This document shows, in pieces, positions 48,530 to 63,735 of a DNA stretch of 64,000 bases. The position numbers and the translations under genes are program-made. The stretch comes from Pseudonocardia autotrophica. Lineage in GTDB: Bacteria; Actinomycetota; Actinomycetes; Mycobacteriales; Pseudonocardiaceae. Location: the NCBI RefSeq assembly GCF_000717175.1, contig NZ_JNYD01000012.1, forward strand, positions 62,001-126,000, given 5' to 3'. Within the stretch, counting starts at the first letter, position 1. Every line of letters begins with the position of its first letter. Below the pieces are notes generated by a model. That model saw only the letters and a program-made list of their open reading frames with translations, was not told where the DNA came from and did no database searches.

Positions 48530-49882
48530 GTGGGGCACGAGTTGGGGACGGTCGAGGTGGCACGGCACCGCCGGCGCACGCCGCCGCTGCCCACCGGCGA
48601 GATCCGGGTGGAGCCGCCGCCGGAGCCGGAGCGCGCGGTCCCGCCCGGGCTGCTCGCCCGGGTCCTGCCGGTCGCGATGCTGCTCGGCTCGCTCGGCGTG
48701 GTCGCCGTGGGGTCGAGCGAGCCGTCGGCGTGGGTGTTCGGCGGGATGTTCGCCTTGTCGTCGGTCGGCATGCTGCTCACGGGCGGTACCGCCCGCGGCT
48801 CCGAGCGCACCGCGACCGTCGACGAGGACCGCCGCGACTACCTGCGCTATCTCGCCCAGCTGCGCGCACGCGCGGACCGTGCGGCCGCGGCACAGCGGGC
48901 GGCGCTGGAGGAGCTGTACCCGCATCCCGCCGCCTGGCCCGAGATGCTCGCGGCCGGCCGGCTGTGGGAACACGACCCCGGCGACGCGGACTTCGCCCGC
49001 GTCCGGGTCGGCCTCGGACCGCAGCGGCTCGCCACCCCGCTCGTTCCGCCCCGCACCGGGCCCGTCGACGGCGTCGAGCCGGTGAGCGCCCGCGCCCTCC
49101 GCCGCCTGCTGGCCCGGCGCTCGGTCGTGCCGGACCTTCCCGTCGCGGTCGACCTGCGGGCGGCGTCGGCGGTGTGGCTCGACGGCGGTCCGGAGCGGGC
49201 ACGGGCGGTCGCGCGGGCCGTCGTCGCCGGGTTCGTGCTCGGGCACGGCCCGTCCGACGTCCACGTCGCGGCACTCACCGGCGACCAGGCCTGGGACTGG
49301 CTGAAGTGGTTGCCGCACAACGCCCATGCCGTCGAGCGGGACGCCCTCGGCCCGGTCCGCATGATCACCTCCGATCCGGACGAGCTGCGCCGCTGGTGGG
49401 CCGCGGACCCCGGGCCACGGCATCTGCTCGTCGTCGTCGACGGCCCGGTCGACGGGCCCGGTGCGTGGGCGGCGGCGGAGGGTGTGACGGTGCTGCGGGT
49501 CGGGGTGCCCGCGGCCCGGCGGGAGTCCGCGTCGGTCGTGCGGTTGCGGCTCGACGAGCCCGGCGCCGTCGCGCGCCCGGACGAGCTCGACGCCGCCGAC
49601 GCGCTCGCCCTCGCCCGCCGCCTCGCCCGGTACCGGCCCGCGGGCACCGAGCGGACCCGGCCGGCGGCGGAGGGCCTGCCGGACCTGCTGGGACTCGGCG
49701 GGATCGGCCCCGCGGACGTCGCGACGCTGCGCCGGTCGCGCTCGACGGCCGACCGGATGCGGGTCCCGCTCGGGCTCGACGACGCCGGCCGCCCGCTCCT
49801 GCTCGACCTCAAGGAGTCCGCGCGGGGCGGCAGCGGTCCGCACGGGCTGTGCGTCGGCGCGACGGGGTCGGGCAACGCCTAG
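48530..49882 (+). pseudogene. eccC: eccC, 5' part, interrupted at the first Walker A motif
   Basis: The first 450 residues of EccC, the FtsK/SpoIIIE-type ATPase motor of type VII secretion. Two membrane helices lie at about residues 41-90, then the DUF/first ATPase domain. The reading ends GLCVGATGSGNA-stop: the P-loop GATGSGK is cut in its lysine codon by the integrated element, and AAC GCC TAG come from the element. The rest of the gene resumes at 63716. GTG at 48530 is the likely start. As it stands no EccC with a complete first ATPase can be made from this end. Confidence 0.92.
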
Positions 49883-49890
49883 CGGGACTA
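49861..49890. other. attL, left junction of the integrated element
   Basis: Host sequence GACGGGGTCGGGC meets element sequence CGCCTAGCGGGACTA at the dinucleotide AA (49874-49875). The right junction has the same AA at 63716-63717. Joining the outer halves gives the uninterrupted eccC codons for GATGSGKSELL. Joining the inner halves gives a putative attP, TTAGGG-AA-CGCCTAG, with an imperfect dyad (AGG/CCT centred on AA). A serine integrase gene starts 32 bases inside, which fits. Confidence 0.8.
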
Positions 49891-49906
49891 TGACACACTA
49901 CGGCTC

Positions 49907-51331
49907 GTGCAGGCAACAGGACCCCGGCGATGCGCCATCTACGCGAGGATCAGTCGCGACAAGACCGGGGCCGGCCTCGGCGTCGAGCGGCAGGTCAGCG
50001 ATTGTCGACAACTCGCCGCAGACCTCGGCTGGGAGGTCGTCTTACCGCCGTTCGAGGACAACGACATGTCCGCGTACTCGGGCAAGCCACGTCCGGCATA
50101 CCGCGCGCTGCTCGACGCGATCAGGGCCGGGAAGGTCGACGCGGTCCTGACGTGGCACAGCGACCGGCTTCACCGCTCACCGACGGAGCTCGAGGAGTGG
50201 ATCGAGGTCTGTGACCCGCGCGGCGTCGGCGTTCACACGGTGAAGGCCGGACCGCTCGATCTGGCGACTCCGGCGGGCCGGATGGTTGCGCGGCAGCTTG
50301 GCGCTGTGGCCCGCTACGAGTCGGAGCACCGGTCGGAGCGTGTCGCGGCGAAGATGCTGCAGATCGCGCAGGACGGCGGGTTCCTTGGCGGCGTCCGTCC
50401 GTTCGGGTACAAGAGCGGCGGCATGGAGTTGGAGTCGGCCGAGGCGCGTGCAATCGCAGAGGCGACGCGGTCGATGCTGCAGGGCGGTTCACTTCGGATG
50501 ATCGTGCGGTCGTGGAACGAGGCCGGATTCACGACTACGAAGGCCGAGCGCGCGTGGACTCCGGACGCCGTGCGGGACGTGTTGAAGCGGGCCCGGAACG
50601 CCGGTCTGCTCGAGCACCGCGGCCGCGTCGTCGGTGTAGCCAAGTGGCCAGCGATCGTCAGCGAGGAGGAGTGGCAAGGTGTCGTGACCGTGCTCGGTGA
50701 CAAGTCGCGCCGGACCAGCCGGGGCAACACGCCGCGGTGGCTGCTGAGCGGCATCGCTCGTTGCTCGACGTGCGGCGAGGGGATGGTGGTCGGCACGTCT
50801 GGGACGCACCGTCACCCGTCGTACCGGTGCCGGTCGAACGAGCGCGGCGGCCCGCGGCATGTGACCCGCGCGGCGCACAGCCTGGACGAGTTCGTGTCGC
50901 AGCTGACAGTGGCGCGCCTGTCAATGGACGACGCTCGCGACCTGTTCGCGCCGGCGGCTCCCGAGGTGGACATCGCGCAGGTCCGTGGGGACCTGGCTGG
51001 AATCGACGAGCAGCGCACGGAACTCGCAGCACGGTTGGGCCGTGGAGAGATCAGTTTGGCGATGATGGACGCGGCGAACCGGCCCCTGTTGGAGCGGCAG
51101 CTGCAGCTGGAGGCGACGCTCGCGCAGGCGACAATCCATTCGCCTCTGGTGGACGTCGTGACTGCCGACGACGTGGCCGGCGCGTGGGCAAAGCTGGATC
51201 TGCAGCGTCGTCGCGGGATCGTCGACGCGCTGATGTCCATCACGGTGCTGCCAGCTCCGCGGGGCCGCCGGCCGGGGGGCGCTTGGTTCGATCCGGACTC
51301 CGTGCAGATCGAGTGGCGGCCACCGTCGTGA
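49907..51331 (+). CDS. Large serine integrase
   Basis: A 474-residue large serine recombinase. Order: resolvase-type catalytic domain with nucleophile S16 in AIYARISRDK; recombinase domain (VRPFGYKSGGMELE onward); zinc ribbon with CSTCGEGM and YRCRS; then a helical region likely to be the coiled coil. GTG at 49907 lies 24 bases after the truncated eccC stop, same strand, with no ribosome site, so it may be driven by the eccC promoter when integrated. It should catalyse attP x attB integration without host factors. Its stop overlaps the next start (GTGA). Confidence 0.93.
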   Translation: MQATGPRRCAIYARISRDKTGAGLGVERQVSDCRQLAADLGWEVVLPPFEDNDMSAYSGKPRPAYRALLDAIRAGKVDAVLTWHSDRLHRSPTELEEWIEVCDPRGVGVHTVKAGPLDLATPAGRMVARQLGAVARYESEHRSERVAAKMLQIAQDGGFLGGVRPFGYKSGGMELESAEARAIAEATRSMLQGGSLRMIVRSWNEAGFTTTKAERAWTPDAVRDVLKRARNAGLLEHRGRVVGVAKWPAIVSEEEWQGVVTVLGDKSRRTSRGNTPRWLLSGIARCSTCGEGMVVGTSGTHRHPSYRCRSNERGGPRHVTRAAHSLDEFVSQLTVARLSMDDARDLFAPAAPEVDIAQVRGDLAGIDEQRTELAARLGRGEISLAMMDAANRPLLERQLQLEATLAQATIHSPLVDVVTADDVAGAWAKLDLQRRRGIVDALMSITVLPAPRGRRPGGAWFDPDSVQIEWRPPS

Positions 51332-51573
51332 GCTCGGCCAGCGGGGAGGACTACTACGGCGGGGAGTACCTGCAGGACATGGCCGAACAGCGGCTAATCG
51401 AGTTCGGAGGCGAGCGGCTCAGACTTGCGGCGCACGACCTCGCCGGCCGGTACGTCGACGAGCGCTATCCCTGGGACGGCCGCGGCGACGAACCGGCCGA
51501 TCGGCTGTCGGCGTACATCGCGATGCTGTGGCAAGTAGGGGATGCGTACGAACCCGGAGGAGAAGGAACCTGA
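51328..51573 (+). CDS. Small protein coupled to the serine integrase
   Basis: An 81-residue protein with no family I recognise: VSSASGEDYYGGEYLQDMAE at the start, a helical middle, and an acidic C-terminus. GTG at 51328 overlaps the integrase stop, so it is made in ratio with the integrase. This position makes it a candidate recombination directionality factor, but that is only an inference from linkage. Confidence 0.6.
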   Translation: MSSASGEDYYGGEYLQDMAEQRLIEFGGERLRLAAHDLAGRYVDERYPWDGRGDEPADRLSAYIAMLWQVGDAYEPGGEGT

Positions 51574-51773
51574 TGTCGTTGCACGTGCTGTACGTCGACC
51601 CGGCGTCGGAGGCTGCCCGCTGGATGGACATCCCGGGCGCGGACCACGAGAACCCGCCGGTGTCGCTGGAGTACCTGTCGACGGAGTCGCCGGACCCGTT
51701 GCGGGCGGGAACCTACCGGCGCACCGGTGAGCAGCGTGACGGCCGCTGGGTGTACCGGCGCGTGGCCGAGTGA
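51573..51773 (+). CDS. Small hypothetical protein
   Basis: A 66-residue protein (MSLHVLYVDPASEAARWMD...). GGAGAAGGAA lies 5 bases before the ATG, and the ATG shares a base with the previous stop. The end GTYRRTGEQRDGRWVYRRVAE looks like a compact beta structure. No function can be assigned; it belongs to the integrase unit. Confidence 0.6.
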   Translation: MSLHVLYVDPASEAARWMDIPGADHENPPVSLEYLSTESPDPLRAGTYRRTGEQRDGRWVYRRVAE

Positions 51774-52780
51774 CGCGGCAGCCGTTCAGCTGGGAGGTCG
51801 TCCCGAGATCAGGCGAGGGGCCGTCGTTTTTCGGGGCCACGCTGCGGTACACACAGGGGAACGACGCGGCGGCAAAGATGGACGAGGTGGCCGAACGGAT
51901 CTCGGCGCGCATCGCTGCCCACCAGTGGGACTACGTCCGCTTCCCGCGGGACAATCCCCAGGCTGGCCCGCTCGACGCGGAGAACCTCTACGGGTTCATC
52001 CAGCCTGAGGACAAGCGCAGCGTGAGCCTGTGGGCCAGCGAAACCCTGCACTGCCTGCGCAGCTCCCTCGACCACGCCGTCTACACGGCGTCTTGGCTGG
52101 CACGAGGGAAACCGGCCGACGGCACTCAGTTCCCGGTGTGCTTCACGCCGGACGAATGGGCATCGGACAGGACGGCGAGGCAGCTGGGCCAGATGCGGGC
52201 CGAGCACGCCGCCTGGATCGAGGCTGTGCAGCCCTGCCGGGGGGTCGCGTGGACGAAGGAGCTGCACAGCCTCCACAACATGGACAAGCACCGGAAGCCG
52301 ATCGAGGCGACACCGACGGTGCAGTTCGACGTGGACCTGTCGAGGACCTACAGGGACCCGCGGGACTCCTCCGTGCTGCTGGTGCCTGTCGAGCACGTCG
52401 GGATCCGGGTCCGGCTCGTCGGAATCAAGCGCAAGAAGCGTGAGCAGAAGCGGCGCGACATCGCCGAGGTCTTCAACCCGATCTTCCGAGGCGCAGGAGA
52501 GCTGCTGAACAGGTTCCTCGCGGAGGAGGGGCTCCCGCTGCTCCGTATCCCGGAGACAGATCCGCCGCGCGGGGGCCTGATCCCACGCCGTCTGTGCGAC
52601 GGCATCTCATCTCCTCCGGCGGCACGCCTGGTGCCGCGGTCCGCTCCTCCGGCCGGGGCCAGCCCGCCCCGGAGGGGAAATCTGGACGCCACGACCCCAA
52701 ACCTGTACAAAGCGTGGGACGGCACGGCGGCCCGGGAATCGAGAGGCTGCGGGTCTTCAGCCGAGCAGGACCCGCGATAG
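51770..52780 (+). CDS. Hypothetical cargo protein with R-x4-H and DKH motifs
   Basis: A 336-residue protein starting at GTG, overlapping the previous stop (GTGA). Residues 1-240 are well-behaved; conserved-looking blocks are LHCLRSSLDHAVYTASWL (R97-x4-H102), TQFPVCFTPDEW, and LHSLHNMDKHRKP (170-176). The R-x4-H pattern in a helix recalls HEPN ribonuclease folds, but this is weak evidence. After residue 250 the sequence is Pro/Arg-rich and disordered, so the true end may have been lost by a frameshift. It is the last gene of the integrase-coupled group. Confidence 0.6.
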   Translation: MTRQPFSWEVVPRSGEGPSFFGATLRYTQGNDAAAKMDEVAERISARIAAHQWDYVRFPRDNPQAGPLDAENLYGFIQPEDKRSVSLWASETLHCLRSSLDHAVYTASWLARGKPADGTQFPVCFTPDEWASDRTARQLGQMRAEHAAWIEAVQPCRGVAWTKELHSLHNMDKHRKPIEATPTVQFDVDLSRTYRDPRDSSVLLVPVEHVGIRVRLVGIKRKKREQKRRDIAEVFNPIFRGAGELLNRFLAEEGLPLLRIPETDPPRGGLIPRRLCDGISSPPAARLVPRSAPPAGASPPRRGNLDATTPNLYKAWDGTAARESRGCGSSAEQDPR

Positions 52781-52900
52781 CGCGGCCGTCCTCAGGGGTC
52801 CGCACCGTCGGGCTCATCCCGCAGGGGCCGGGACGGCCGTGCTGTCGGATCCCGCTGAGCGAAGAAGCACATCACCGTCGTCGCACAACAGGGCCTTGAC

Positions 52901-53233
52901 GTGACAGCTATTCCCGGAAGTCGGCTCGGGCACATCCACGCGCTCCGTGTCCGGGAACGCGTCGATAAGGCGCGCTTCATAGATGCAACGCTGGACGTGA
53001 AGCTTGCTGGTGATCGCTGGGAAGCGAATCCGTCCGAGGAGCAACGAGTTGAGTTCAAGGCCGCTCTGGAGCGGCATCTCTTCGACGGTCGCCGTTACGT
53101 GGCGGCCGTGAAAGACCTTCTCGGTGAACTCGGGGGCGCGGCGCCAGAGGTGGTTGCGGCGATCCGCTCGGATGTGTGCGAGATCGAGAGACAGCTGTTG
53201 GCCACCGTTCTGCTGCTTCGGCACGTTCGTTGA
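52901..53233 (+). CDS. Hypothetical helical protein
   Basis: A 110-residue protein starting at GTG (VTAIPGSRLGHIHALRVRER). It is mostly helical with normal composition (FKAALERHLFDGRRYVAAVKD). Unlike its neighbours it is separated by 120 bases. A 142-residue frame on the opposite strand (52814-53242) overlaps it completely and cannot be excluded; the plus-strand reading looks better in composition and direction. Confidence 0.45.
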   Translation: MTAIPGSRLGHIHALRVRERVDKARFIDATLDVKLAGDRWEANPSEEQRVEFKAALERHLFDGRRYVAAVKDLLGELGGAAPEVVAAIRSDVCEIERQLLATVLLLRHVR

Positions 53234-53936
53234 TGTCACCACCCCGCGTCTCTGATGCGCGACGTCTCGGCGTAAGAGCCAGCTGCCGCCACTCGACCGG
53301 ACTCGCGAGACACGTTGAGCAGCCGCGGGCGCTGTGCCCAGCTACCCGCGCACCCGGCGCGGCCGTCCTCGTCGAGTCCCCTCCCCTCGAGGGCGGTCGC
53401 GCTGGCGCTACGGTCGGCTCCCCCGGCCAGCACTGCCGGGAGGTAACTCCAACGGGCGGTAAAGCGAACATGCAGTCGGTCACCGCGTGAACGGCAGCAA
53501 GATCGGGCACACCCAGACCGTGGATCCCAGGCCCCTCCGGGATCCGCTGAGCGGCGCGGCCGTCCCCGCCCAGACCCCCGCGGCGGATGGCCGCGCCGTG
53601 CTACGTCCGGAGCACGACGTCCCGTTCACCACGAGCTATCCGGTTCCGGGCCCTTGGCCACACGACTGACCGACCTCCGCCCGGTATTTCCCAAGCTGGT
53701 ATCGGGGTCCTATCTGTACGGGGGGTCGCAGGAGGCGGTCGGCTCGTCGGAGGGAACACCGGCGGGCCGGCCGTCCCACGTCGGCCGAAGCGTAGAGACC
53801 AAAGTCCGCAGAGCCACACGGGCGAAGACTCACGCCCGGGGAGGGGGTCCCCCCCACCCCCGCAGCGCGGGCCGCGGCCGGGCGTCTGTGGGGTGCGCGT
53901 GGCATGGGTCGTTCTCCCCGGGGTAGTGGACCAGCT
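53234..53936. other. Apparently non-coding stretch of the element's left arm
   Basis: About 700 bases without a convincing gene on either strand. It includes a 7-bp hairpin (53522-53528 with 53539-53545, GGATCCC/GGGATCC) and a G-run/C-run block near 53845-53865. The motif GCGGCCGTCC recurs at about 52782, 53359 and 53556. It could be an origin, a regulatory RNA or a decayed gene. Confidence 0.4.
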
Positions 53937-54329: not shown

Positions 54330-54571
54330 ACCGGGTCGGTCTTGGTGGTGGGCTGGTAGTTCGGGGTCCGCCCAGTGACGGGGCCTTGGCCGCGGCGTGC
54401 GACCCGTTCGCGGCGCATCTGCCGGCCACGCTGAACGCCGGTGAGCTTGCCGCTCTCGCCTGGCTCGGCGTCAGGTTGGCGCGGAGATGGTTCCTTCTGC
54501 TGCTCGGCAGGTTGGCCGTGGCGGGTGCGCTTGCGGCGCAGACGGCGGCCGTCCTCGATGCCGCTCACCAC
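54326..54571 (-). CDS. Small basic hypothetical protein
   Basis: An 81-residue, strongly basic and Gln-rich protein (GRRLRRKRTRHGQPAEQQKE) starting with GTG at 54571 and overlapping the stop of the upstream 322-residue gene. It is the last gene of the long minus-strand arm. A basic disordered protein could bind DNA, but no motif is seen. A plus-strand frame over the same bases (54152-54694) has a hydrophobic stretch and is an alternative. Confidence 0.4.
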   Translation of the reverse strand: MVSGIEDGRRLRRKRTRHGQPAEQQKEPSPRQPDAEPGESGKLTGVQRGRQMRRERVARRGQGPVTGRTPNYQPTTKTDPV

Positions 54572-55533
54572 TCGGTCCCGGTGCGGCGGCGCAGGCCCTT
54601 GCTGTTCCGGTCGGCATTGACGATCGCGGCGACTCGGGCAGGGGTGGCCTTGCTGCGCCCCTGGCCGGGGTGGAGCTCGTCGGGCGCGATCTGAGGCTTG
54701 TACGGGTCCTGGTGCGGCCGCACGGTGATGACCTGGTTGGGCCGGACCGGGGCGGGCTTACTGGCGTCATGGTCGGTCTGTGCCCGGGTCTCGACGGTGA
54801 CCGGGTCGGCGATGTCCACGCCGTCGAGCTGGAGCACTCGGAACATGAGCGCGGTGTCGTCGTCGGGCAGGTCCACGGGCGGGCCGGCGACGGGGAACGC
54901 GGCGGCGGCTTCCTTGGGCCACCATCCGAGGTCGCTGCCGGGCTTACGGCCCCACCGGGGCACCGGCCGGCCACCTTCACGTTCGGGGACGCTGCCGACC
55001 ACGGCGAGGTGGATCAGGTCGGCGTGGGCCTTGCGCAGGGTGCGGTAGCGGGCCGCGGACTCGCGGATGGCGCGCAGCGCGGCTGCGGCATCGGGGCCGG
55101 CGTCGACGGCCTGCTCGGCGGTGCGGGCATCGCCGAGGTTGGCGGCGGCGGCGCGAGCCGCGGTCAGGAGCTCGTCGAGCTCGGCGCGGAGGACGTCGAG
55201 CGCGAAGTCGACGTGTTCCTCGATCAGCTCGTCGGCGCGGTGATTGACCTCGGCGGCGGCCAGGCGCAGAGCGGTGGCGCCGGCCTTGAGGCGCTCGCCG
55301 GCCTGGGCGGCGTCGAAGGCTTGGACGTGGAGGTCGTCGGGGAGCTTCTTCCCGTCGGTCGCGGTGGTCGCGAGGTCGTTGGCCAGGGCGCGGGTGGCGC
55401 CGGCGCCTTCGGGTCCGCGGGCGCGGCGGGCGAGGTCCTCGGCGTGCTCGAGGAGCCGTTGACGGGCGGTGGTGGCGTCGCGGTAGCCGGGGATGGCGTC
55501 GAGGGCGCGGTCAAGGAGCTGGTTGGTCGGCAC
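54565..55533 (-). CDS. Hypothetical helical protein
   Basis: A 322-residue protein. Residues 1-170 are a long run of Ala/Leu/Glu/Arg helices, probably coiled coil (ATTARQRLLEHAEDLARRAR). The second half has FPVAGPPVDLPDDDTALMFRVLQLDG and ends in a basic tail. AGGAGG lies near the ATG at 55533. It follows the WhiB-like gene by 36 bases. Proteins of this shape are often carried by actinomycete plasmids, but I cannot name a function. Confidence 0.65.
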   Translation of the reverse strand: MPTNQLLDRALDAIPGYRDATTARQRLLEHAEDLARRARGPEGAGATRALANDLATTATDGKKLPDDLHVQAFDAAQAGERLKAGATALRLAAAEVNHRADELIEEHVDFALDVLRAELDELLTAARAAAANLGDARTAEQAVDAGPDAAAALRAIRESAARYRTLRKAHADLIHLAVVGSVPEREGGRPVPRWGRKPGSDLGWWPKEAAAAFPVAGPPVDLPDDDTALMFRVLQLDGVDIADPVTVETRAQTDHDASKPAPVRPNQVITVRPHQDPYKPQIAPDELHPGQGRSKATPARVAAIVNADRNSKGLRRRTGTEW

Positions 55534-55569
55534 GGGTTTCCTCCTGGTTGCGTGTGTCGTGGCTGGTGG

Positions 55570-55887
55570 TCATGCGGCGCCGCGGCGGACGTGTGGCAGG
55601 CCGTGAGCGCGGCCGGCCCAGATGCCGACGCGGAATCGCTCGGGCAGTTCGGCGGCGATCTGGGCGCACGTTGTCGAGGCGGGGCAGTCGGCGCAGCGGG
55701 CGGCGGCGCGGGTGAGGCGTGCGGCGTGCTGGTCGTGGGTTTCGCCGGGGAGCGGGTCGACGTCGTGTTCGGGGGCGAGGCCGGCGCAGCGGGCGCCCGG
55801 CAGTGCTGGGCCGGCGAGCAGGTCCGCGAGTAGGTCGGGGACGGCGCGGCGGGTGCGGACCTCGGTGCGGTTGAGCGACGGGGTCAT
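55570..55887 (-). CDS. WhiB-like iron-sulfur transcription factor
   Basis: A 105-residue WhiB-family protein. The four iron-sulfur cysteines are C34, C65, C68 and C74 (C-x30-C-x2-C-x5-C), followed by the turn GIWAG (usual GVWGG). Such proteins bind the sigma-A region 4 and tune promoters in response to redox or NO. I chose the ATG at 55887: it overlaps the previous stop (ATGA) and has GAGGAG upstream; the longer open frame is Arg/Pro-rich and antisense. It may control the element's own transfer genes. Confidence 0.85.
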   Translation of the reverse strand: MTPSLNRTEVRTRRAVPDLLADLLAGPALPGARCAGLAPEHDVDPLPGETHDQHAARLTRAAARCADCPASTTCAQIAAELPERFRVGIWAGRAHGLPHVRRGAA

Positions 55888-56171
55888 GTCGGGCTCCTCG
55901 TGTCGTCGGGCCATCGGTGCGGAAGCACTGGTCGGCGGTACAGGGGGTGGCCGCGCTGGCGGCGCAGGAGCGCGGCCCAGGCGAGCGGTCCGACGGTGTC
56001 GGGGTGCACGGCCAGGGCGAGGAGGTCGGCGCGGAAGTCGGCGACGGTGCCGATGCCGGCGAGCTGACCGCGGCGGTAGAGCGGGCCGATGAGGATGTCG
56101 TCGTCGAGCTGGGCGAGCAGCTGCAGCGTGCGGCGGATCGCCGGCCAGTCCGTGCGGCGGGTCATCGACAT
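55884..56171 (-). CDS. Hypothetical protein, WhiB-coupled
   Basis: A 95-residue protein (MSMTRRTDWPAIRRTLQLLA). It has a helical first half, an IGPLYRRGQLAGIGTVADF middle and a basic Pro-rich end. Start overlaps the upstream stop by about 10 bases and its stop overlaps the WhiB ATG, so it is made with WhiB. Function unknown. Confidence 0.6.
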   Translation of the reverse strand: MSMTRRTDWPAIRRTLQLLAQLDDDILIGPLYRRGQLAGIGTVADFRADLLALAVHPDTVGPLAWAALLRRQRGHPLYRRPVLPHRWPDDTRSPT

Positions 56172-56524
56172 CTCGGCGGGACGAGGGTCGAGGAGTGCAC
56201 GGGGCGGCCGGTCTGGTCGAGGTCAACGTAGAACGGCGGGTACGTGTGGCGGTCGTGGCCGAGGAACTCGCGGTCACCCGCGGCGGTAGCGACGGGGGTG
56301 CCGTCCTCGTGGCGCCAAATGGGCCAGCGGCCGCGGTGCGGTCGGGCGGGCTGGCCGTCGAGCGGGCCACCGATGTAGACCTCTTCCGTCCGGGACGGGG
56401 TCAGCTCTGAGGTGGTCCTCCAGTCAGTGACCCCGTCCCCATAGGGGGGGACGGGGGACGGGGTCACGCTGACCCCGTCCGGGACGGGGTGGGACGGGGT
56501 GGGACGGGGTCGGTCGGTGGTCAT
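56162..56524 (-). CDS. Hypothetical protein with repeat-bearing N-terminus
   Basis: A 120-residue frame. From residue 48 it contains VYIGGPLDGQPARP, a segment typical of small phage and plasmid proteins whose start is often IGGPLDG-like. The first 45 residues are Pro/Thr/Ser-rich and are encoded by the GACGGGGT repeats at 56394-56510, so the true start may be further in. ATG at 56524 overlaps the upstream stop (ATGA). Function unknown. Confidence 0.5.
   Translation of the reverse strand: MTTDRPRPTPSHPVPDGVSVTPSPVPPYGDGVTDWRTTSELTPSRTEEVYIGGPLDGQPARPHRGRWPIWRHEDGTPVATAAGDREFLGHDRHTYPPFYVDLDQTGRPVHSSTLVPPRCR
56394..56510. repeat. Seven-copy GACGGGGT direct and inverted repeat cluster
   Basis: GACGGGGT occurs directly at 56394, 56457, 56483, 56493 and 56503, and inverted (ACCCCGTC) at 56430 and 56472. 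The last three form perfect 10-bp tandem units GGGACGGGGT. The cluster lies just past the end of the DnaB/RepA-like gene. It may be an iteron-type origin, an operator, or simply a low-complexity coding repeat. Confidence 0.75.
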
Positions 56525-58062
56525 GCTGCGGACTCCTCGAAGGGCTTCACGAGGCGGTGGTTCTTGGCTCCGCGCGGCCCGTCCTCTTCGACGACGAAGC
56601 CCTCGTCGACGAGGGCGGCGAGGGCGGCGCGGGTATCGGCGGCGCGCCGGCCGCGGACCCGGTCGGTGATCTCTGTCTTGGACAGCGGGCGTGGCGCGCC
56701 GGCGAGCGCAGCGGCGACCTTGGCCATCAGGGCGGTTGGGCGGAAGGTCGACAGCTCCTCGCCGCGGTGGTGGGGAGACACGAGGCTGGCGTCGAGGACG
56801 GGCCGGCCGTCGACGACGACGCTCTCCAGGGTCAGGTCGGCGAACCAGTGCAGGCCGTCGCGTGCGGGGAGCGCGTGCTGGCGAAGCTGTGCGGGTCGGT
56901 CCTTGGCGACGTAGACGGTTGATCGGCCGGTGACACCGATCCCGAACGGGGTGCGGTTCTCCAGGACGTAGGCCGCGCCGTTGAGGCCGGCGAGCTTGTG
57001 CTGACCGCCGATCGAGTAGCGGCCGCGGCCCTCGCGGTCCTTGGTGACGTGGTCGAGGTCGACGACGGCCGGTCCGCGGTCGGCGATCCAGCGGGGCAGC
57101 ATCGCCCCGAACCTGGCGATGTCGCCGTTGTCGATGAGCTCCATGCCGTGGAGGGTCATCGCCTCGGTGACGCCGTCGAGGACCACGAGGGTCGGATCGA
57201 AGTGCTCGAGCAGGTCGGCGAGGATCGCGCGGTTGCGTCCGACGTTGATTGCCTCCATCGGGCGGACGTAGGCGAACCCGTGGCGGATGGCGTCGGGGTC
57301 GGCGCCCAGGGCGAGCAGGCGGCCGACGACGCCACCCTCGTCGTCCTCGAAGTCGAGGTAGACCACCGAGTGCCCACGATCGAGTTCGATCCGTGCGGCG
57401 AGCAGCGCGAACCAGCTCTTGCCGGCCTCTGACTCGGCCGAGACGCTGTGAACGCGGCCGGGGTAGAACAGGCCGACGCCGTCCGCGCGCCGGCTGACCG
57501 TCGGCTGAGCCGGCCGGTACGTGCCATCGAGGACGGCGGTGAGGTCGACGGCTGCCCAGGAGGTCGCCGGCCGGTCCCGGAGGGTGCTGCCGGCGGCGAG
57601 CTTCGCGGCGGCGTCGGCGACCAGGTCGTCGACGTCATCGAACCCGGTGCCGGCTTGCCGGACGCGTTGCAGCGCCAGGGTGAGTTCTTCGATCGCGCGC
57701 CGTTTCCTGGCCTGTGCGGCAACGATCTCGGCGTGGAACGCCGCGCTGGCCGGCGTTGAGACCGAAGCGATGAGCGTGTGCAGGTAGGGAAGGCCACCGA
57801 CACGCGCGAGCTGGCCCCGGCTGTCCAGCTCGTGGCCGACAGTGACCGCATCGGCGGGGTCGCCGCGGTGGTGGAGGTCGACGATCGCGGCGAAGACGTC
57901 GGCATGCGCGGGCCGGTAGAAGTCGCGTGGTTCGAGCTGCTGCAGCACGTCGTCGATCGCAGCGCGGCTGAGCAGCATTGATCCGAGGACGCTCTGTTCG
58001 GCCGGGACGTCGGCCGGCGGGAGCTGCTCGACCGGAGCTGCTCTATCTGCAGCTGCGGTCAT
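56521..58062 (-). CDS. DnaB N-domain / RepA-like AAA ATPase
   Basis: A 513-residue protein. Residues 15-130 match the DnaB N-terminal helicase-loading domain (AEQSVLGSMLLSRAAIDDVL). Then a RecA-type ATPase of the AAA_25/RepA group: Walker A SAESEAGKSWF (GKS 214-216), YLDFEDDEGG, Walker B TLVVLDGVTE, and DLDHVTKD. A winged-helix-like C-terminus (PLSKTEITDRVRGRRAADTRAAL) follows. I chose the ATG at 58062 because CCGGAGG lies 8 bases upstream and it overlaps the previous stop (ATGA). Likely role: helicase or helicase loader for element replication. Confidence 0.8.
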   Translation of the reverse strand: MTAAADRAAPVEQLPPADVPAEQSVLGSMLLSRAAIDDVLQQLEPRDFYRPAHADVFAAIVDLHHRGDPADAVTVGHELDSRGQLARVGGLPYLHTLIASVSTPASAAFHAEIVAAQARKRRAIEELTLALQRVRQAGTGFDDVDDLVADAAAKLAAGSTLRDRPATSWAAVDLTAVLDGTYRPAQPTVSRRADGVGLFYPGRVHSVSAESEAGKSWFALLAARIELDRGHSVVYLDFEDDEGGVVGRLLALGADPDAIRHGFAYVRPMEAINVGRNRAILADLLEHFDPTLVVLDGVTEAMTLHGMELIDNGDIARFGAMLPRWIADRGPAVVDLDHVTKDREGRGRYSIGGQHKLAGLNGAAYVLENRTPFGIGVTGRSTVYVAKDRPAQLRQHALPARDGLHWFADLTLESVVVDGRPVLDASLVSPHHRGEELSTFRPTALMAKVAAALAGAPRPLSKTEITDRVRGRRAADTRAALAALVDEGFVVEEDGPRGAKNHRLVKPFEESAA

Positions 58063-58259
58063 GCCTGTCGCCTCCGGCGGCAACGGCGTGGCCAGATCCA
58101 GCAGGCGCACGCGTCATGTGCATCGAGGTGGTCGAGGGCCTTCCACAGCGCCAGGGCGGCGACGTCGTCGATTCGGTTACGCTGGCCCTGCCCACCGCCT
58201 GGGTTGCTAGTGCTGAGCGCCGGCCGCATGTCCCGCGGCCGGCGTTCCTGCGTTCTCAT
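58059..58259 (-). CDS. Small hypothetical protein
   Basis: A 66-residue protein. NRIDDVAALALWKALDHLDAHDACACWIW is followed by a basic tail. The ATG at 58259 overlaps the upstream stop and its own stop overlaps the DnaB-like ATG, both as ATGA. The C-A-C-W-I-W end is unusual. Longer upstream frame is rejected as Arg/Pro-rich. Function unknown. Confidence 0.55.
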   Translation of the reverse strand: MRTQERRPRDMRPALSTSNPGGGQGQRNRIDDVAALALWKALDHLDAHDACACWIWPRRCRRRRQA

Positions 58260-58498: not shown

Positions 58499-58785
58499 GG
58501 GGCTGTCCCTTGTGGGTCAGCGCCTGCGTCCAGCGTCCACGGGTGGGAGACGGGATCGCAGGCGCGTATGGCCTGGTGATCTCGCTCGACCTGTCGGAGA
58601 CGCCTGGTCCGTGACGGAAGCTGGCGTCGCCTGGACGCCGCTGCACTTCACTAGATCGTTCGGTTCGGGGGTCGCGATTGCGCGATCGCGCGGCGCCTGG
58701 CCGTGTGGCGATCGGGACGGTTGACGATCCCGTTCCCTAGCGGGGTATTCGGTTGTGCCGGTGGACGTTAGCACTCGGTCTGCGA
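58499..58785. other. Non-coding gap with a 12-bp palindrome
   Basis: A 287-base gap between the tyrosine recombinase stop and the first gene of the next minus-strand unit. It contains the perfect palindrome GCGCGATCGCGC (58680-58691) within a region rich in CGATC. It is the likely promoter/operator region, and since tyrosine integrases usually have their attP just downstream, it could also hold a second attachment site. No tRNA-like sequence is seen. Confidence 0.5.
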
Positions 58786-59733
58786 TCACGACAAAGGTCC
58801 GCGGCGAGGTCCGAGAAGCGAGCCCAGGTGTGCAACTACAGCTGCGGCGTGGTCCTGGCTGAACTGCGTATAGATCTGCGTGGTGGCCGGCGAGGAGTGC
58901 CCGAGCAGCTCTTGGGTGAGCCGAAGGTCTCGCGACAGCTGGTAGATCCGGGTCCCGTAGCGGTGCCGCAGCGAATGGCAGGTGTGCGGGATGCCGAGCT
59001 GCCGCAGGTGCGCGTTGACCAGGATCGACACGTGATAGCCGGGACGGTCCGGCTGCTGGTCTAGTGCCCAGAGCCGGCCGCGGCGGCCGGTCATGTGCGG
59101 TGCCAGCTCGGCGAGCACCTCGGCCGGGAGCGGCACCTTGCGAGGCCGGCCGCCCTTGCCCTCCGGGATGTCGAGGATCGGCGGGTCGAGGTGGTCAAGG
59201 ATGTCCTCGCGGCGCACCTGGTGGATTTCCATCGCGCGGAGCCCGCAGTAGGAACCGAGGACCAGCCAGGCGCGCATCCGCTGGTCGGCAGTGGTTAGGG
59301 CGAGTTCGAGATCGGCCTCGGGGATCGGTCGTGGGCGGGCATGGGGTCGGCGCGGAAGCGGGATCTCGCGGGTCGGGTCCTCGGTGAGGTAGCCGCGGCG
59401 GGCGAGCCAGCCGTAGAAGCTGCGGATGTTCGCGGTGTAGGACACGCGGGTGGCCTGGGAGAGGCCGCGGTTGACCTGCGCGTCGAGCCACTGCTCGATG
59501 TCGGCGGTGGTGGCCTGCAGCAGAGTCCGTGGCGCGAGGTGGGTGGCAAGGTCGAGCACCCGCATTTCCCGGTTCCTCAAGGTGGGCGGCCTCAGACCGC
59601 GGCGTTTCATGTCGCGGATGTGCTCGGCGAGGGCGTCGCGGTCGGCGGCGTCGAGGATCGAGCGGTCGAAGCGTGGTCTCATCGCCCGGCCGCCCGGAAC
59701 GTCACTGAGTCGTGCGCTGCGTTGGGGCAGCAC
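58786..59733 (-). CDS. Tyrosine recombinase (XerC/integrase type)
   Basis: A 315-residue protein (298 if the ATG at 59682, MRPRFDRSILDAAD, is used). It has the SAM-like core-binding domain, then the catalytic set: R in SYCGLRAMEIHQ, K in PEGKGGRPRKVPL, H-x-x-R in CHSLRHRYGT, H in LLGHSSPATT, and Y in TTQIYTQF. It has no arm-binding domain, so it is of the short Xer type. It follows Rep closely with no excisionase between. It may resolve element multimers or be a second integrase. Confidence 0.9.
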   Translation of the reverse strand: MLPQRSARLSDVPGGRAMRPRFDRSILDAADRDALAEHIRDMKRRGLRPPTLRNREMRVLDLATHLAPRTLLQATTADIEQWLDAQVNRGLSQATRVSYTANIRSFYGWLARRGYLTEDPTREIPLPRRPHARPRPIPEADLELALTTADQRMRAWLVLGSYCGLRAMEIHQVRREDILDHLDPPILDIPEGKGGRPRKVPLPAEVLAELAPHMTGRRGRLWALDQQPDRPGYHVSILVNAHLRQLGIPHTCHSLRHRYGTRIYQLSRDLRLTQELLGHSSPATTQIYTQFSQDHAAAVVAHLGSLLGPRRGPLS

Positions 59734-59842
59734 GAGGTGGAACCATCGTTCATGGGTCAGCTCCCTTGTAGCTGATCAAGGTCCGGGTAGCCGGCGTTGC
59801 AGCGCCGGTCCGGGCCGTCCAATCGGGGGCGGGACGGGTTTC

Positions 59843-61084
59843 TCAGACGGGTCTTGCTGTCACTGGTCGTCGGGGCGCGGGTAGGAACCAGTCCAGACAC
59901 CGGGCAGTGAGCCAGGCCTTCACGGCGTCGACGCCCTGGGTTTCGGCGAGGTCGAGCAGCTCGGCCACGTGCAGGCGCACGGCGGGCCATGCCTCGGGGG
60001 TGACACCGATGGTGTCCTCGCCGCCCAGGTCCTCGGCGACGATGTCGTCGTCGGTGCGTTCGGTGCGCAGGCCCGCCCAGGCGCGGAGGTCCCGCGACCA
60101 GGACACCTGTCGGCGGTTGAAGCTGGCCTGTTCCCACTCCCACCACAGTTCGCAGTCGTCGGCGAGCCCGGTGGCCAGGGCGTCGCGGAGGATCGCGAAC
60201 GGGGAGCGGTTGCCGTCGCGGCCCTCCTTCGCAGAGGAGGCGACGACCTCGGCGGTGATCTTCGCGAGGTAGTCGGAGACCTGCTCCAGCGACGCGGCGG
60301 TCATCTGCACGGCGCGGACGTCGAGGCCTCCGCGGTCTTCGACGGCGTCCATGCCGCGGCGAGCCAGGGCGCGCTGCCAGCGGGCGAACCAGCGGCCGCC
60401 GAGTTCTTCGGCCATCAGATCTGAGATCGGGCCGTCGAAGACCGCGAGGGCGTGGACGTGGAGGTGCCAACCGTGCTCGCCGTGGGTGGCTTCGACGACC
60501 CGGACCCATCCGAGTAGGCCCCAGGTGTCGCGTTCGCGTTCGCACTGCCGCCCGGACACGACCGCACCCCAGGCCGCGGACAGCGCGGTCCACAGGTCGG
60601 CGAGGCGCTGACCGCGACGGTGCCGCATGGTGAGGGTGATCAGGTGCGCCGACCCGCGCGCGGCGGCGACCGTGGACAGCACGTCGAGCAGCTCGGCAGA
60701 GCGTTCCCCGGCGATCCGGCGGGCGCACACCGGGCACGCCCACGGCGACCCGCAAGACTGCAGGCCGGCCAGACCCGCTCGACGACCCTCCGGCGTCTCG
60801 GACACCCGCAGCACCGGGCCACCCGCCGCGGTGTGCGTCACCCGGCCGCAGTGCCGCAGCCGCTTGAGGGACGTCCAGGACCACAACCGTGAGCGCCAGG
60901 CGATCGCCTCCGCGCGCCGGTGCCGACGGCGCCTCTCCCGGTCAGCCACGACGGGCGGCTGACCAGCGGCGGAAGGGGCGTCCGCAGGAGTACCAAGGGT
61001 CGCGGCCTTCGGCCGCTCCCGGCCGCCCGCTCCCGCCTCCGGCGTCGCGGCGGCCGGACGGCCAGGCCTCACCGTGGAGCTCAT
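59843..61084 (-). CDS. Rolling-circle replication initiator (RepSA-like)
   Basis: A 413-residue HUH-type Rep protein. Motif I HLITLTMRH (147-155), HUH motif II GWHLHVHALAVF (H209, H211), and motif III EQVSDYLAKI with nicking Y272 and K275. A zinc-like cluster, C111, C117 and C120 (SCGSPWACPVC), precedes them. This is the set found in pSAM2-type and pIJ101-type plasmids. I chose the ATG at 61084, overlapping the upstream stop (ATGA). It should nick a double-strand origin, which is often within or near the gene. Confidence 0.88.
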   Translation of the reverse strand: MSSTVRPGRPAAATPEAGAGGRERPKAATLGTPADAPSAAGQPPVVADRERRRRHRRAEAIAWRSRLWSWTSLKRLRHCGRVTHTAAGGPVLRVSETPEGRRAGLAGLQSCGSPWACPVCARRIAGERSAELLDVLSTVAAARGSAHLITLTMRHRRGQRLADLWTALSAAWGAVVSGRQCERERDTWGLLGWVRVVEATHGEHGWHLHVHALAVFDGPISDLMAEELGGRWFARWQRALARRGMDAVEDRGGLDVRAVQMTAASLEQVSDYLAKITAEVVASSAKEGRDGNRSPFAILRDALATGLADDCELWWEWEQASFNRRQVSWSRDLRAWAGLRTERTDDDIVAEDLGGEDTIGVTPEAWPAVRLHVAELLDLAETQGVDAVKAWLTARCLDWFLPAPRRPVTARPV

Positions 61085-61341
61085 CGGACACGCTCCCCGC
61101 GGGATGCCTCCGGCGGCCCTGCCGGGGGCACCTCGGCTCCGGGCAGGGGGAGCCGCTCCCTGCCCATCACGTCGGCCCCGGAGGGCAGCACGGCCGGCGC
61201 ACGACCCGCGAGCACGCGCAGGCGGGTGGCGGTGGCGTGGGCGGGTCGCGGGCCGCACACCGGCCGTGCCGGAGCAGGCTCGCCGACGTGACGGGCAGGG
61301 AGCTTGAGCAGGACCACCGCGAGGATCAGCAGGGGGATCAC
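61081..61341 (-). CDS. Small membrane protein between Tra and Rep
   Basis: An 86-residue protein starting with GTG (VIPLLILAVVLLKLPARHVG), giving one N-terminal membrane helix and a Pro/Ala-rich cytoplasmic or exported tail. Its start overlaps the translocase stop (GTGA) and its stop overlaps the Rep ATG (ATGA). Its position fits the small spread or transfer proteins of actinomycete elements; role inferred only. Confidence 0.65.
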   Translation of the reverse strand: MIPLLILAVVLLKLPARHVGEPAPARPVCGPRPAHATATRLRVLAGRAPAVLPSGADVMGRERLPLPGAEVPPAGPPEASRGERVR

Positions 61342-62510
61342 GGGGCGACCGCCCGGGCGTACTCGGCGTAGGACAGGTACGGAGCCCGTAGGCGGCCCAC
61401 GGGCAGGCCAGGCCACGTGTAGAGGGCGATGCCCGGGTCGGCGCCGGCGTGATCGGGGGCGAGGTCTTCGGCGCCGGCGTGGAGCAGCTTGACGGCCTCG
61501 GGGGAGTCGACGCGGAACGAGAGCCGACCCGCGCACTGGGCCCGCTCGGCAGCGCCGACGATGGTGGCCTCGGCGCGCTGGGCGAGCAGCAGGACCCGCA
61601 TTCCGACCTTGTGTGACTCGGCGAGCAGCCGCGCGACCAGCGCGCGGACGCGCTTGCCCTGCCTGGTGTCGGCGGTGTCGAGGGCGCGCAGGATCCCGGG
61701 CCACTCCTCGAGGACGACCAGGATCAGCGGGTGGTGGTCGTCGACGGGCAGGACGTCGCGGTCGACGGGCATCGCGGTGAGGCGGGTATCCATGTCGTCG
61801 ACCAGGGCGGCGAGAACATGCTCGACGCGGTCGAGGTCGGCCAGCCCGGACACCACCCGGTCGGCAACGGCGAAGGGGCGCAGGGTGAGCCCAGAGGCGT
61901 CGACACCGGCGATCCGCACCGTCCGGCGGTGGGCGAGCTGCGCGAGCAGCCCGTAGGTCCAGGTGGACTTCCCGGACCGGGTCTGCCCTTGGCAGATCAT
62001 GTGCGGCAGGTCGGGCGGGTCGACCCACAGCGGACCGGACTCGGTGAGGCCGAGGAGGACGGGGCCGGCGTGGTGGTGGCGGATCCGGTAGGGGTCGGCG
62101 AGCGGGTCGCGGTCGAGGAGCTCCACGCGGGCCCACCCGAGGCCGCGCGGTTCAACGCGCAGTGCGACGGCCCCGAGGTGCGGGGCGAGGCGGGGCGCGG
62201 CCTTGCGCAGGTCCTCGGGGAGCTGGCCGGGCAGCAGGCGCACGATCAGCACGGTGGGCGGGCCGAGGGTGACCGAGGCGACGGCGGGGGTGGAGACGGT
62301 GGGCCCGGACGGGGTGTCGACGGTGCGGGACGCGCCGGCGCCTTCGCAGGCCTGCCGCCATGCCCAGATCAGCCGCTCGGCGGTGAGGGCGGCGGCGTGC
62401 TGGTCGGCGCGGTGCTCGGCGTGGTGTCGGCGGCGGGTGCGCCACCCCGGACGGGCCGGAGCCCCTACCCCAGGGAAGCGGGCAGGGGCTCCGGAGTTGG
62501 TGGCGGTCAT
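61338..62510 (-). CDS. FtsK/SpoIIIE-type DNA translocase, probable conjugal Tra
   Basis: A 390-residue protein with an FtsK-type ATPase. Walker A is GQTRSGKST (175-183) and Walker B is LILVVLEEWPG; QRAEATIVGAAERAQC is the usual sensor-like segment. It has no clear membrane helices of its own. In mycelial actinomycetes one such hexameric motor moves double-stranded plasmid DNA between cells. I chose the ATG at 62510, which overlaps the previous stop (ATGA); the longer frame is antisense-like. Small membrane proteins on both sides may supply anchoring. Confidence 0.85.
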   Translation of the reverse strand: MTATNSGAPARFPGVGAPARPGWRTRRRHHAEHRADQHAAALTAERLIWAWRQACEGAGASRTVDTPSGPTVSTPAVASVTLGPPTVLIVRLLPGQLPEDLRKAAPRLAPHLGAVALRVEPRGLGWARVELLDRDPLADPYRIRHHHAGPVLLGLTESGPLWVDPPDLPHMICQGQTRSGKSTWTYGLLAQLAHRRTVRIAGVDASGLTLRPFAVADRVVSGLADLDRVEHVLAALVDDMDTRLTAMPVDRDVLPVDDHHPLILVVLEEWPGILRALDTADTRQGKRVRALVARLLAESHKVGMRVLLLAQRAEATIVGAAERAQCAGRLSFRVDSPEAVKLLHAGAEDLAPDHAGADPGIALYTWPGLPVGRLRAPYLSYAEYARAVAP

Positions 62511-62833
62511 GCTGCGTGCCGCCGCGGTCGGATCGGGATGATCTCGGCGAGCGGTTCGGCCGCGGGACGTGGTGGCGCGGCGGACACGTCGGCGCTGATG
62601 TCGTCGGGCACCTCGACGGCCTGTACGGCGTCGTCCGGGTCGTGTCCGACGGCCCACGGAGCTGGCCTGCGGACGCGGAGGGTGGGCCGCATCCACGGGC
62701 GGTCTCGGGGGACGAGTAGGACGGCGAGGTAGCCGAAGAACATCCCGGCGAGGACGAGGGAGATCGGCAGCGGGGCGAGCCACCAGATGGCGGCGGCGAC
62801 CCGGCCGAGGAAGGCGAGGACGTCCCACATCAC
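62507..62833 (-). CDS. Two-helix membrane protein upstream of Tra
   Basis: A 108-residue protein with two membrane helices (WDVLAFLGRVAAAIWWLAP and ISLVLAGMFFGYLAVLLV) and a Pro/Asp-rich tail ending PIRPRRHAA. GTG at 62833 or ATG at 62830 both overlap the upstream stop. It may anchor the Tra motor; this is inferred from coupling. Confidence 0.65.
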   Translation of the reverse strand: MMWDVLAFLGRVAAAIWWLAPLPISLVLAGMFFGYLAVLLVPRDRPWMRPTLRVRRPAPWAVGHDPDDAVQAVEVPDDISADVSAAPPRPAAEPLAEIIPIRPRRHAA

Positions 62834-63198
62834 GCGGCCGCCGGCTTCTGCTGGCCCTGTCCGTCGATGCCGTCGGCGCGCATCGAGAGGGCGACGCGGC
62901 CGGTGGAGCGGTCGGCGTAGGGGACGGCGACGAGGTTGATGAACCGGACCGGCTTCCACTTGTCGACCTTCGGCTCGTCCCAGGAGGCGACGCGGACGCC
63001 GATGACCTCGGCGCGGTCGGCGTCGTCGTCGTCGACCAGGACGTCGATGACCCACAGCGGGACGCCGTGTTCGTCCTTGTCCTGCTCGCCGGTGCGGCGC
63101 CGGGAGCCGTCGGAGAGTTCGGCGTACTGGGCGCGGGCGGCGGCCTTGCCGGTGCCGATGAACTGGGCGCGGGTGGAGTCGACAGGGATGGTGCGCAT
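62830..63198 (-). CDS. Conserved-looking element protein, unknown function
   Basis: A 122-residue protein starting at the ATG at 63198 with CAGGAGACACCC upstream. MRTIPVDSTRAQFIGTGKAA and VPLWVIDVLVDDDDADRAEV suggest an OB- or beta-rich fold, and FINLVAVPYADRS continues it. Such proteins commonly precede tra in actinomycete elements and may bind single-stranded DNA; I cannot confirm that. Confidence 0.6.
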   Translation of the reverse strand: MRTIPVDSTRAQFIGTGKAAARAQYAELSDGSRRRTGEQDKDEHGVPLWVIDVLVDDDDADRAEVIGVRVASWDEPKVDKWKPVRFINLVAVPYADRSTGRVALSMRADGIDGQGQQKPAAA

Positions 63199-63295
63199 GG
63201 GTGTCTCCTGGTGTGAGTGCAGGGGTGAGGCCCGCCGGGTGTCGGCGGACAGGTGTGGGCGCCCGTGGGCGCGCAGGGGTGAGCCCCGGCCGGCG

Positions 63296-63619
63296 TCAGC
63301 TGGTCGGGGCGGTGAGGGTGTCGGCGGCGCGGCGCAGGGCGGGGCCGTCGAGGTGCGCGAGGGTGGTGCGGTAGTCGTCGAGGACGCCCGCGAGGAGTCC
63401 ACGGCGCTGTATGTCTGCCCATTCCGCGGGTGGCACCGTCGTCGGTCCCCAGACCTCGGGGTCGGGTCCGCGCTCGATGAGACGGTCGGCGACCGCAAGG
63501 GAACGCAGGATGTCGCCGACGGGGATCGCGAACGCGGCGGGCAGCGTGTTCACGGCCGCATACAGGGCGCGATTGGCCTCGGTCTGGTCGCCGCGGACGG
63601 CAGGGGGCATGATGCCCAT
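63296..63619 (-). CDS. Hypothetical protein at the right end of the element
   Basis: A 107-residue helical protein. The ATG at 63619 (MGIMPPAVRGDQTEANRALY) has AGGAGC about 9 bases upstream; MPPAVRG at 63610 is an alternative. RSLAVADRLIERGPDPEVWG and DYRTTLAHLDGPALRRAAD are its ordered parts. It is the first minus-strand gene, 97 bases from the attR half. Confidence 0.55.
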   Translation of the reverse strand: MGIMPPAVRGDQTEANRALYAAVNTLPAAFAIPVGDILRSLAVADRLIERGPDPEVWGPTTVPPAEWADIQRRGLLAGVLDDYRTTLAHLDGPALRRAADTLTAPTS

Positions 63620-63700
63620 GGGCGGAGCTCCTACTCCGTCAAGGCCTCGGATCACGGTGTTGGCGCACCGCCCGGGGCCGTCTGCATTTATGGGTGCGGC

Positions 63701-63735
63701 AGTTCCGGGTTAGGGAAGAGCGAGCTGCTGCGGAC
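63701..63735. other. attR, right junction of the integrated element
   Basis: Element sequence AGTTCCGGGTTAGGG meets host sequence GAGCGAGCTGCTGCGG at AA (63716-63717). The five bases around the crossover are GGCAA at the left end and GGGAA at the right, so the exact crossover is uncertain by up to three bases. Either choice restores GSGKS in eccC. Confidence 0.8.

What the first reader, a model, noticed from the sequence alone, without database searches (positions are those of the whole stretch)
49860..63735. An integrative element splits the ESX-4 motor gene eccC exactly at its catalytic P-loop lysine
The left half of eccC ends GATGSG followed by three element-derived codons and stop; the right half begins with the K-S-E-L-L-R that belongs to the same P-loop. 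Both junctions share AA in a GG(C/G)AA context, and joining the outer halves restores the gene. The P-loop is among the most conserved stretches of any ATPase, so it is a safe target for the element, but its use silences the host secretion system. Because a serine integrase with a directionality factor can reverse this, the element may work as an on/off switch for type VII secretion, like prophages in comK or sigK.
Basis: partly seen in the sequence, partly recalled or inferred. Interest (0 to 1): 0.85.

Follow-up and report, generated by a model that had tools for sequence, protein, structure and literature searches.

The report
Mobile element breaks secretion motor's ATP-site
A mobile DNA element in a soil bacterium sits in the two DNA letters that begin the key lysine of a secretion motor's ATP-binding site, and relatives of its integration enzyme sit at the same spot, in the same gene, or in genes linked to DNA uptake in many other bacteria.

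Summary
In a Pseudonocardia halophobica genome a 13.84-kb element splits the ESX-4 gene eccC inside its first Walker A motif. The crossover dinucleotide is most likely AA, the first two bases of the Walker A lysine codon. eccC is uninterrupted there in 27 of 30 Pseudonocardia loci read.

The element has the core genes of an AICE-type conjugative element and a large serine integrase. The case is one of a series: Walker A insertions by related integrases occur in eccC in four species and in the Tad-pilus motor gene tadA at eight loci (both junctions read in nine of the twelve). The eleven placed in a tree fall in one integrase group. Relatives outside it sit in eccC at two other sites, in yifB/comM (14 loci), in a pilin-like gene (5) and in tadA elsewhere (1): 34 of 74 loci in all.

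A regulated switch is not supported: no excised form or directionality factor was seen. Best reading: an integrase clade that recognises P-loop DNA and moves between P-loop genes. Not excluded, and more interesting: such elements gain by breaking DNA-acquisition genes, ESX-4 among them. That large serine recombinases favour competence genes is already published.

The parts
48557..49873 (+). eccC left half (N-terminal part of EccCa up to Walker A GATGSG); start codon not certain
   Evidence: TIGR03924 positions 1-462; 87.5% identical to intact eccC of G019
49874..49875 (.). attL core dinucleotide AA (first two bases of the Walker A Lys codon)
   Evidence: in the G088 case only AA is shared between the two junctions; CTATGACAC 12 nt further on
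49907..51331 (+). large serine integrase, 474 aa (Resolvase, Recombinase, Zn-ribbon domains)
51770..52780 (+). element ORF, no family found
54565..55533 (-). element ORF, no family found
55570..56370 (-). open frame with a WhiB-like stretch (residues 214-253); true start uncertain
56521..58110 (-). DnaB-N / AAA_25 replication protein
58786..59733 (-). second recombinase, tyrosine type (XerC-like)
59843..61258 (-). Rep_1 replication initiator
61338..62510 (-). FtsK/SpoIIIE-like transfer protein (TraB type; that name is recalled)
   Evidence: 54-57% identical homologues in the G008 and G058 elements
62830..63198 (-). SCO3933-family regulatory protein (46.8 bits, below the curated cut-off of 80)
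   Evidence: homologues in the G058 and G008 elements
63716..63717 (.). attR core dinucleotide AA
63718..64000 (+). eccC right half (rest of EccCa, then EccCb), continuing to C12:128049
43098..44426 (+). eccB of the same ESX locus
45908..47062 (-). mycosin protease of the ESX locus
47074..48432 (-). eccD of the ESX locus

Best explanation
An AICE-type element carrying a large serine integrase integrated by one crossover at the AA of the Walker A lysine codon of ESX-4 eccC. The integrase belongs to a clade that recognises P-loop (GxxGSGK) DNA and has moved between the two P-loop genes eccC and tadA. Shown: the junctions, the shared core, the integrase, the element content, the uninterrupted site in relatives, and the recurrence in other species and families. 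Inferred: that integration was catalysed by this integrase, that EccC and so ESX-4 are inactive, and that excision could restore them. The P-loop is a good target because its DNA is conserved across hosts while these two genes are presumably dispensable.
For: The integrase gene starts 32 bp from the attL core. Core AA: in G088 only AA is shared at the two junctions, and all 9 cases with both junctions read align on it. A CTATGACAC-like motif lies 12-13 nt from the core in 9 of 10 Walker A loci examined (the search pattern was made after seeing the arms, no chance control was run, and in the 3 loci of opposite orientation the script's core index was one base off and was corrected by hand). Of the 12 Walker A loci 11 were in the tree, and all 11 fall in one 20-row group (SH-aLRT 92) of 67 integrases, with eccC and tadA users interleaved. 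The 25-nt attB arms of eccC and tadA sites share 14-19 of 25 bases on the left and 9-16 of 25 on the right (3 eccC by 5 tadA sites, no chance control). Different element types use the site: AICE-like (own, G058) and prophage (G314).
Against: Nine of the 20 rows in that group have other or unresolved targets (such as L016, Y-family polymerase, and L112, MgsA/RarA type), so the clade is not purely P-loop-specific. Two opposite orientations occur in tadA (G314, G504, G999, G1211 against G088, G118, G131, G1202), so either specificity changed or P-loops were acquired more than once. The group's support is moderate and comes from a quick tree without bootstrap; in the earlier, smaller tree the P-loop users were not one clade. 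G088 lacks the arm motif. No recombination was tested.
Confidence: 0.82

Rival explanations
1. Anti-uptake conflict: elements with these integrases are favoured because they break genes for taking up or recombining foreign DNA (comM/yifB, Tad pilus, and by extension ESX-4), so the cell cannot replace the occupied locus by an empty copy. This can hold together with the best explanation.
For: 34 of 74 integrase loci sit beside a broken-off eccC (6), tadA (9), yifB (14) or DUF4244 pilin-like gene (5) (4 of the 5 pilin cases by Pfam, 1 by eye). eccC is hit at three different sites and yifB at two, by integrases in different branches, which DNA similarity alone would not explain. An uninterrupted tadA lies within 8 kb of the DUF4244 gene in 3 of 4 such regions fetched. 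P. halophobica carries related elements in both eccC and yifB. Literature: in Micrococcus luteus deletion of any tad gene but tadB abolished transformation (PMC4322843); mobile elements break comM and other competence genes (PMC4774983, PMC11472951); 12.4% of site-specific large serine recombinases hit magnesium chelatase homologues and competence genes are enriched (PMC10083194); ESX-4 is reported indispensable in M. smegmatis recipients (PMC8262963).
Against: The loci are related by descent, so 34 is not 34 events, and 40 of 74 have other or unresolved targets. For most census loci only the integrase-side junction was read. Natural transformation is not known to me in these hosts. ComEC-domain proteins occur in 11 of 11 hosts, but also in 10 of 14 control genomes, E. 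coli among them. The passages read tie ESX-4 to DNA transfer only in M. smegmatis. G1202 carries integrases beside tadA, yifB and a TadE-like gene, but one of its integrases has a stop codon.
Confidence: 0.3
2. Regulated on/off switch: the element excises under some condition to restore eccC, as described for prophages in comK or sigK (recalled).
For: Serine integrases can excise with a directionality factor (recalled); the broken halves show no relaxed constraint; a Frankia AICE with a serine recombinase and no identifiable directionality factor did excise (PMC3218068, passage).
Against: No directionality factor identified; no excised form seen; elements at the same codon are of different types and sizes (about 9.5 to 57 kb), which does not suggest a domesticated host switch.
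Confidence: 0.06
3. Assembly artefact or scaffolding error.
For: Draft genome in 152 contigs.
Against: Both junctions lie within one contig; a second assembly is identical; eight other genomes have both junctions of the same kind.
Confidence: 0.01
4. Receptor loss: breaking surface machines (ESX-4, Tad pilus) protects the element's host from further phages or conjugative elements.
For: Both P-loop targets drive envelope machines.
Against: yifB/comM, whose product is a helicase acting on DNA inside the cell (PMC11472951 passage; location recalled), is the commonest target (14 of 74). No receptor role was tested.
Confidence: 0.07

Closest known systems
Actinomycete integrative and conjugative elements (AICEs) with serine recombinases (PMC3218068: 19 of 144 AICEs)
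   Same: Integrase, Rep and FtsK/SpoIIIE transfer gene; insertion in a protein-coding gene is also reported there
   Different: Target is the Walker A codon of ESX-4 eccC; a tyrosine recombinase is carried as well
Large serine recombinases targeting magnesium chelatase homologues (the family of yifB/comM) and competence genes (PMC10083194)
   Same: Enzyme family, insertion in coding sequence, and the yifB target, found here in 14 of 74 loci including a second element of this same strain
   Different: eccC and the Walker A lysine codon were not found in the main text (the terms ATPase and secretion occur 0 times); the supplements could not be read
Mobile elements breaking competence genes such as comM and comYC (PMC4774983)
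   Same: Gene disruption by integration; proposed benefit to the element
   Different: Main text has 0 occurrences of Actinobacteria, serine or tadA; ESX-4 was not searched in it
Bxb1 in groEL1 and other serine-integrase phages (passage in PMC8092301)
   Same: Integration inside a coding sequence with a short core
   Different: Other gene; the 30 phage integrases listed (of 123 records matched) are 35-37% identical, such as Kumao and phiCAM

Membership tests
Large serine integrase | Resolvase catalytic domain, Recombinase domain and zinc ribbon | tested here: met
   PF00239, PF07508, PF13408 all above cut-off
Large serine integrase | Short identical core at attL and attR next to the int gene | tested here: met
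Large serine integrase | Catalyses attP x attB recombination | not testable with these tools
   needs a recombination assay
AICE | Integrase + Rep + FtsK/SpoIIIE transfer protein (criteria in passages of PMC3218068) | tested here: met
   PF00239/PF07508, PF01446 (Rep_1, among that paper's profiles), PF01580
AICE | Excision and conjugative transfer | not testable with these tools
   no experiment
Reversible gene-switch prophage (comK, sigK type) | Regulated precise excision that restores the host gene | not testable with these tools
   only integrated assemblies seen; no directionality factor identified
ESX-4 eccC | EccCa and EccCb domains in one gene beside eccB, eccD, mycosin, WXG100 | tested here: met
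   (EccCa profile split 1-462 and 462-672 across the junctions)
Competence-gene-breaking element | The broken gene is needed for DNA acquisition in this host | not tested
   known elsewhere for tad (PMC4322843) and ESX-4 (PMC8262963), not in Pseudonocardia

The most novel reading that the evidence does not exclude
The target list of this integrase family is a readout of the machines that bring foreign DNA into actinobacteria. Because eccC is hit at three separate sites by different branches of a family whose other main targets are comM/yifB and Tad-pilus genes, ESX-4 would itself be a DNA-acquisition (recipient) machine beyond mycobacteria, and the Walker A codon a shared target that lets one integrase clade disarm either of two such machines.
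Probability: 0.22. Interest if true: 0.82.

Novelty: new variant of a known kind. Interest (0 to 1): 0.62.

Why it matters
The core and target rule (AA of a Walker A lysine codon, shared by eccC and tadA) is precise enough to test with purified integrase, and shows how an integrase clade can change genes without changing motif. If the target set reflects selection, it offers a testable clue to what ESX-4 does outside mycobacteria, and says that one soil strain has had two genes (eccC and yifB) disabled by elements with related integrases.

Tried and rejected
Switch reading: looked for a directionality factor by Pfam, PHROGs and NCBIfam among the element ORFs submitted; none identified, and some small ORFs were never searched because one search failed. 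Pseudogene reading: dN/dS of the halves is not raised. A second intact eccC: none found; the 1004-aa FtsK-like protein on C40 was judged not EccC by eye from its P-loop context. First idea that G008's element sits in the second P-loop: rejected, it lies about 16 residues before it. Idea that P-loop integrases form a clean clade by target: only partly. One search used a wrong reading frame of yifB as query; it is used only for the place of the right half in this genome, which was then read directly. A 10,083-mismatch comparison was my off-by-one; the corrected value is 0 of 39,536. A loose P-loop attB pattern in the own genome gave 4 matches with 2 mismatches, 0 in its control, not studied further. 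A wrong frame printed (P0002) was not used. The 57-kb G088 element was not annotated.
Full report
What is there. The window lies in a genome (8.02 Mb, 152 contigs) that is identical to Pseudonocardia halophobica VKM Ac-1069 over 39,536 bases around the site, so the two assemblies count as one strain. eccC is split: left half 48557-49873, ending GATGSG, then N-A-stop; right half from GKSELLR at 63713 to C12:128049. The EccCa profile ends at position 462 in the left half and resumes at 462 in the right half; EccCb is complete in the right half. The neighbours are eccB, mycosin and eccD on the left, WXG100 and then rplM and rpsI on the right. The distance between the AA cores is 13,842 bp.

Uninterrupted site. 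In 30 Pseudonocardia loci read at this point (the 30 returned out of 62 genomes searched), the P-loop is contiguous in 27; the three exceptions are this strain twice and P. sulfidoxydans. G019 and G059 are 92% identical in the right half and uninterrupted. No second eccC was found in the genome (in one search only 16 of 50 candidates were scored).

Element. It carries a serine integrase, Rep_1, an FtsK-like protein, a DnaB/AAA_25 protein, a XerC-like tyrosine recombinase and a weak SCO3933-family match. Integrase, Rep and FtsK/SpoIIIE are the AICE criteria in PMC3218068 (passages). The elements in P. sulfidoxydans (G058) and in G008 carry homologues of the rep, FtsK-like and SCO3933-like genes.

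Recurrence at the same codon. eccC is split at the same Walker A in P. sulfidoxydans (integrase 67% identical), G695 and G1086 (43% and 42%; family f8). Among the rows with a short open frame I followed up two: G1086 is split and G1161 is whole. G1070, G1081 and G1089 also have short frames and were not examined. The Tad-pilus motor gene tadA is split at its Walker A in G088, G118, G131, G314 and G504 with both junctions read; one junction only was read in G999, G1211 and G1202. In G088 only AA is common to the two junctions, and all nine cases with both junctions align on AA. The integrase-side arm carries a CTATGACAC-like motif 12-13 nt from the core in nine of ten loci; G088 lacks it (pattern chosen after seeing the arms, three spacings corrected by hand for an index slip). 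In G314, G504, G999 and G1211 the integrase lies beside the right half in the opposite orientation. The G314 element is a prophage: 21 of its 30 candidate ORFs, scanned together, gave portal, major head, tape-measure and endolysin families. Twenty-seven ORFs pooled from G118, G695 and G504 include one capsid and one prohead protease, not assigned to an element.

Census. I examined 74 distinct integrase loci: 53 and 24, with three repeats removed. L014, L119, L142 and L147, copies of loci already counted, were left out beforehand. Gene adjacent to the integrase: eccC 6, tadA 9, yifB 14 by tblastn; DUF4244 pilin-like 5 (four by Pfam, L166 by eye). That is 34 of 74. For most of these only the integrase-side junction was read, so that the gene is split there is inferred. 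A TadE-like case (L179) is below the Pfam cut-off and not counted. The remaining 40 have other targets (Y-family polymerase, AraC type, DUF34/NIF3 neighbourhood, glyoxalase-like, DNA ligase, MgsA/RarA type, NlpC/P60 and others) or are unresolved (in one search, 73 of 97 candidate flank ORFs were scanned). Searches and yields, with different queries: genus, P0001, 37 of 62 genomes at 1e-3; family, P0001, 28 of 390 at 1e-80; order, L080 integrase, 12 of 397 at 1e-100; class, P0001, 6 of 394 at 1e-85, where the five foreign loci lie in tadA (3) or yifB (2); family f8, G1086 integrase, 21 of 401 at 1e-90. Only loci returned by the tool (20 or 30 per search) were examined. No background rate for other genes was measured.

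Tree. In a quick tree of 67 integrases, the 11 Walker A loci included (L181 failed the length filter) fall in one 20-row group, SH-aLRT 92, with eccC users in two separate places (Pseudonocardia; f8) and tadA users around them; nine rows of the group have other or unresolved targets. The integrases at eccC's other sites (L018, before P-loop 2; L180, after the DFKGGATFLG stretch, one junction read) lie elsewhere in the tree. In an earlier tree of 39 the P-loop users were not one clade.

Prior art. Searches: serine integrase + attB + P-loop (0 papers); eccC + integrase + ESX-4 (8, listing only); large serine + Walker A and others (5, listing only); serine integrase + type VII secretion and others (41, 12 listed, two searched for passages); serine integrase + ComM and others (12, 10 listed); magnesium chelatase + attB (3, 2 listed). 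None of what I saw reports this target. PMC10083194 (passages, section 6) reports that magnesium chelatase homologues are targeted by 12.4% of site-specific large serine recombinases and that competence genes are enriched; its supplements could not be read, so eccC or tadA may be listed there. PMC4774983 (passages) gives the conflict model, and PMC11472951 (passages) discusses comM. PMC4322843 (discussion section) shows that deletion of any tad gene but tadB abolished transformation in Micrococcus luteus. PMC8262963 (passages) states that ESX-4 in M. smegmatis recipients is indispensable for conjugation. The link between the Pfam Mg-chelatase family hit here, yifB and ComM rests on shared domains (ChlI, Mg_chelatase, Mg_chelatase_C).

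Judgement. The site-specific insertion and its codon-level rule are well supported. The switch idea is not. The anti-uptake idea is attractive because gene-level convergence (three sites in eccC, two in yifB, and tadA plus a pilin-like gene in Tad clusters) is not explained by DNA similarity, but loci share descent, 40 of 74 targets are other or unresolved, and no host here has been shown to take up DNA.

Noticed in passing
G000:C13 about 109957 to about 136500 (L035, L152): The same strain carries a second element, with a 50%-identical integrase, that splits yifB/comM.
   Followed up: partly
63698-63721: The element-derived codons before the right half read GSSGLGKS in frame, again a Walker A consensus; in the eight other cases with both junctions read this is not so. 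Probably chance.
   Followed up: no
L015 (G058): In P. sulfidoxydans the eccC left half reads on in frame into the integrase (one open frame of 1007 codons).
   Followed up: no
58786-59733: The element carries a tyrosine recombinase besides the serine integrase; its role is unknown.
   Followed up: no
55268-55362 and 62561-62659: ARAGORN calls tRNA-Gln and tRNA-Ile inside the element, overlapping reading frames; likely false.
   Followed up: no
L173, L177 (G1161, G1179): A near-identical integrase pair sits beside an ATP-dependent DNA ligase gene in two f8 species (Pfam checked for L173).
   Followed up: no
L166, L168, L170, L172, L176: Integrases sit in a DUF4244 gene (pilin-like STAEYAIGT motif) at or just after the same YTVV; tadA is nearby in 3 of the 4 of these regions that were fetched.
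   Followed up: partly
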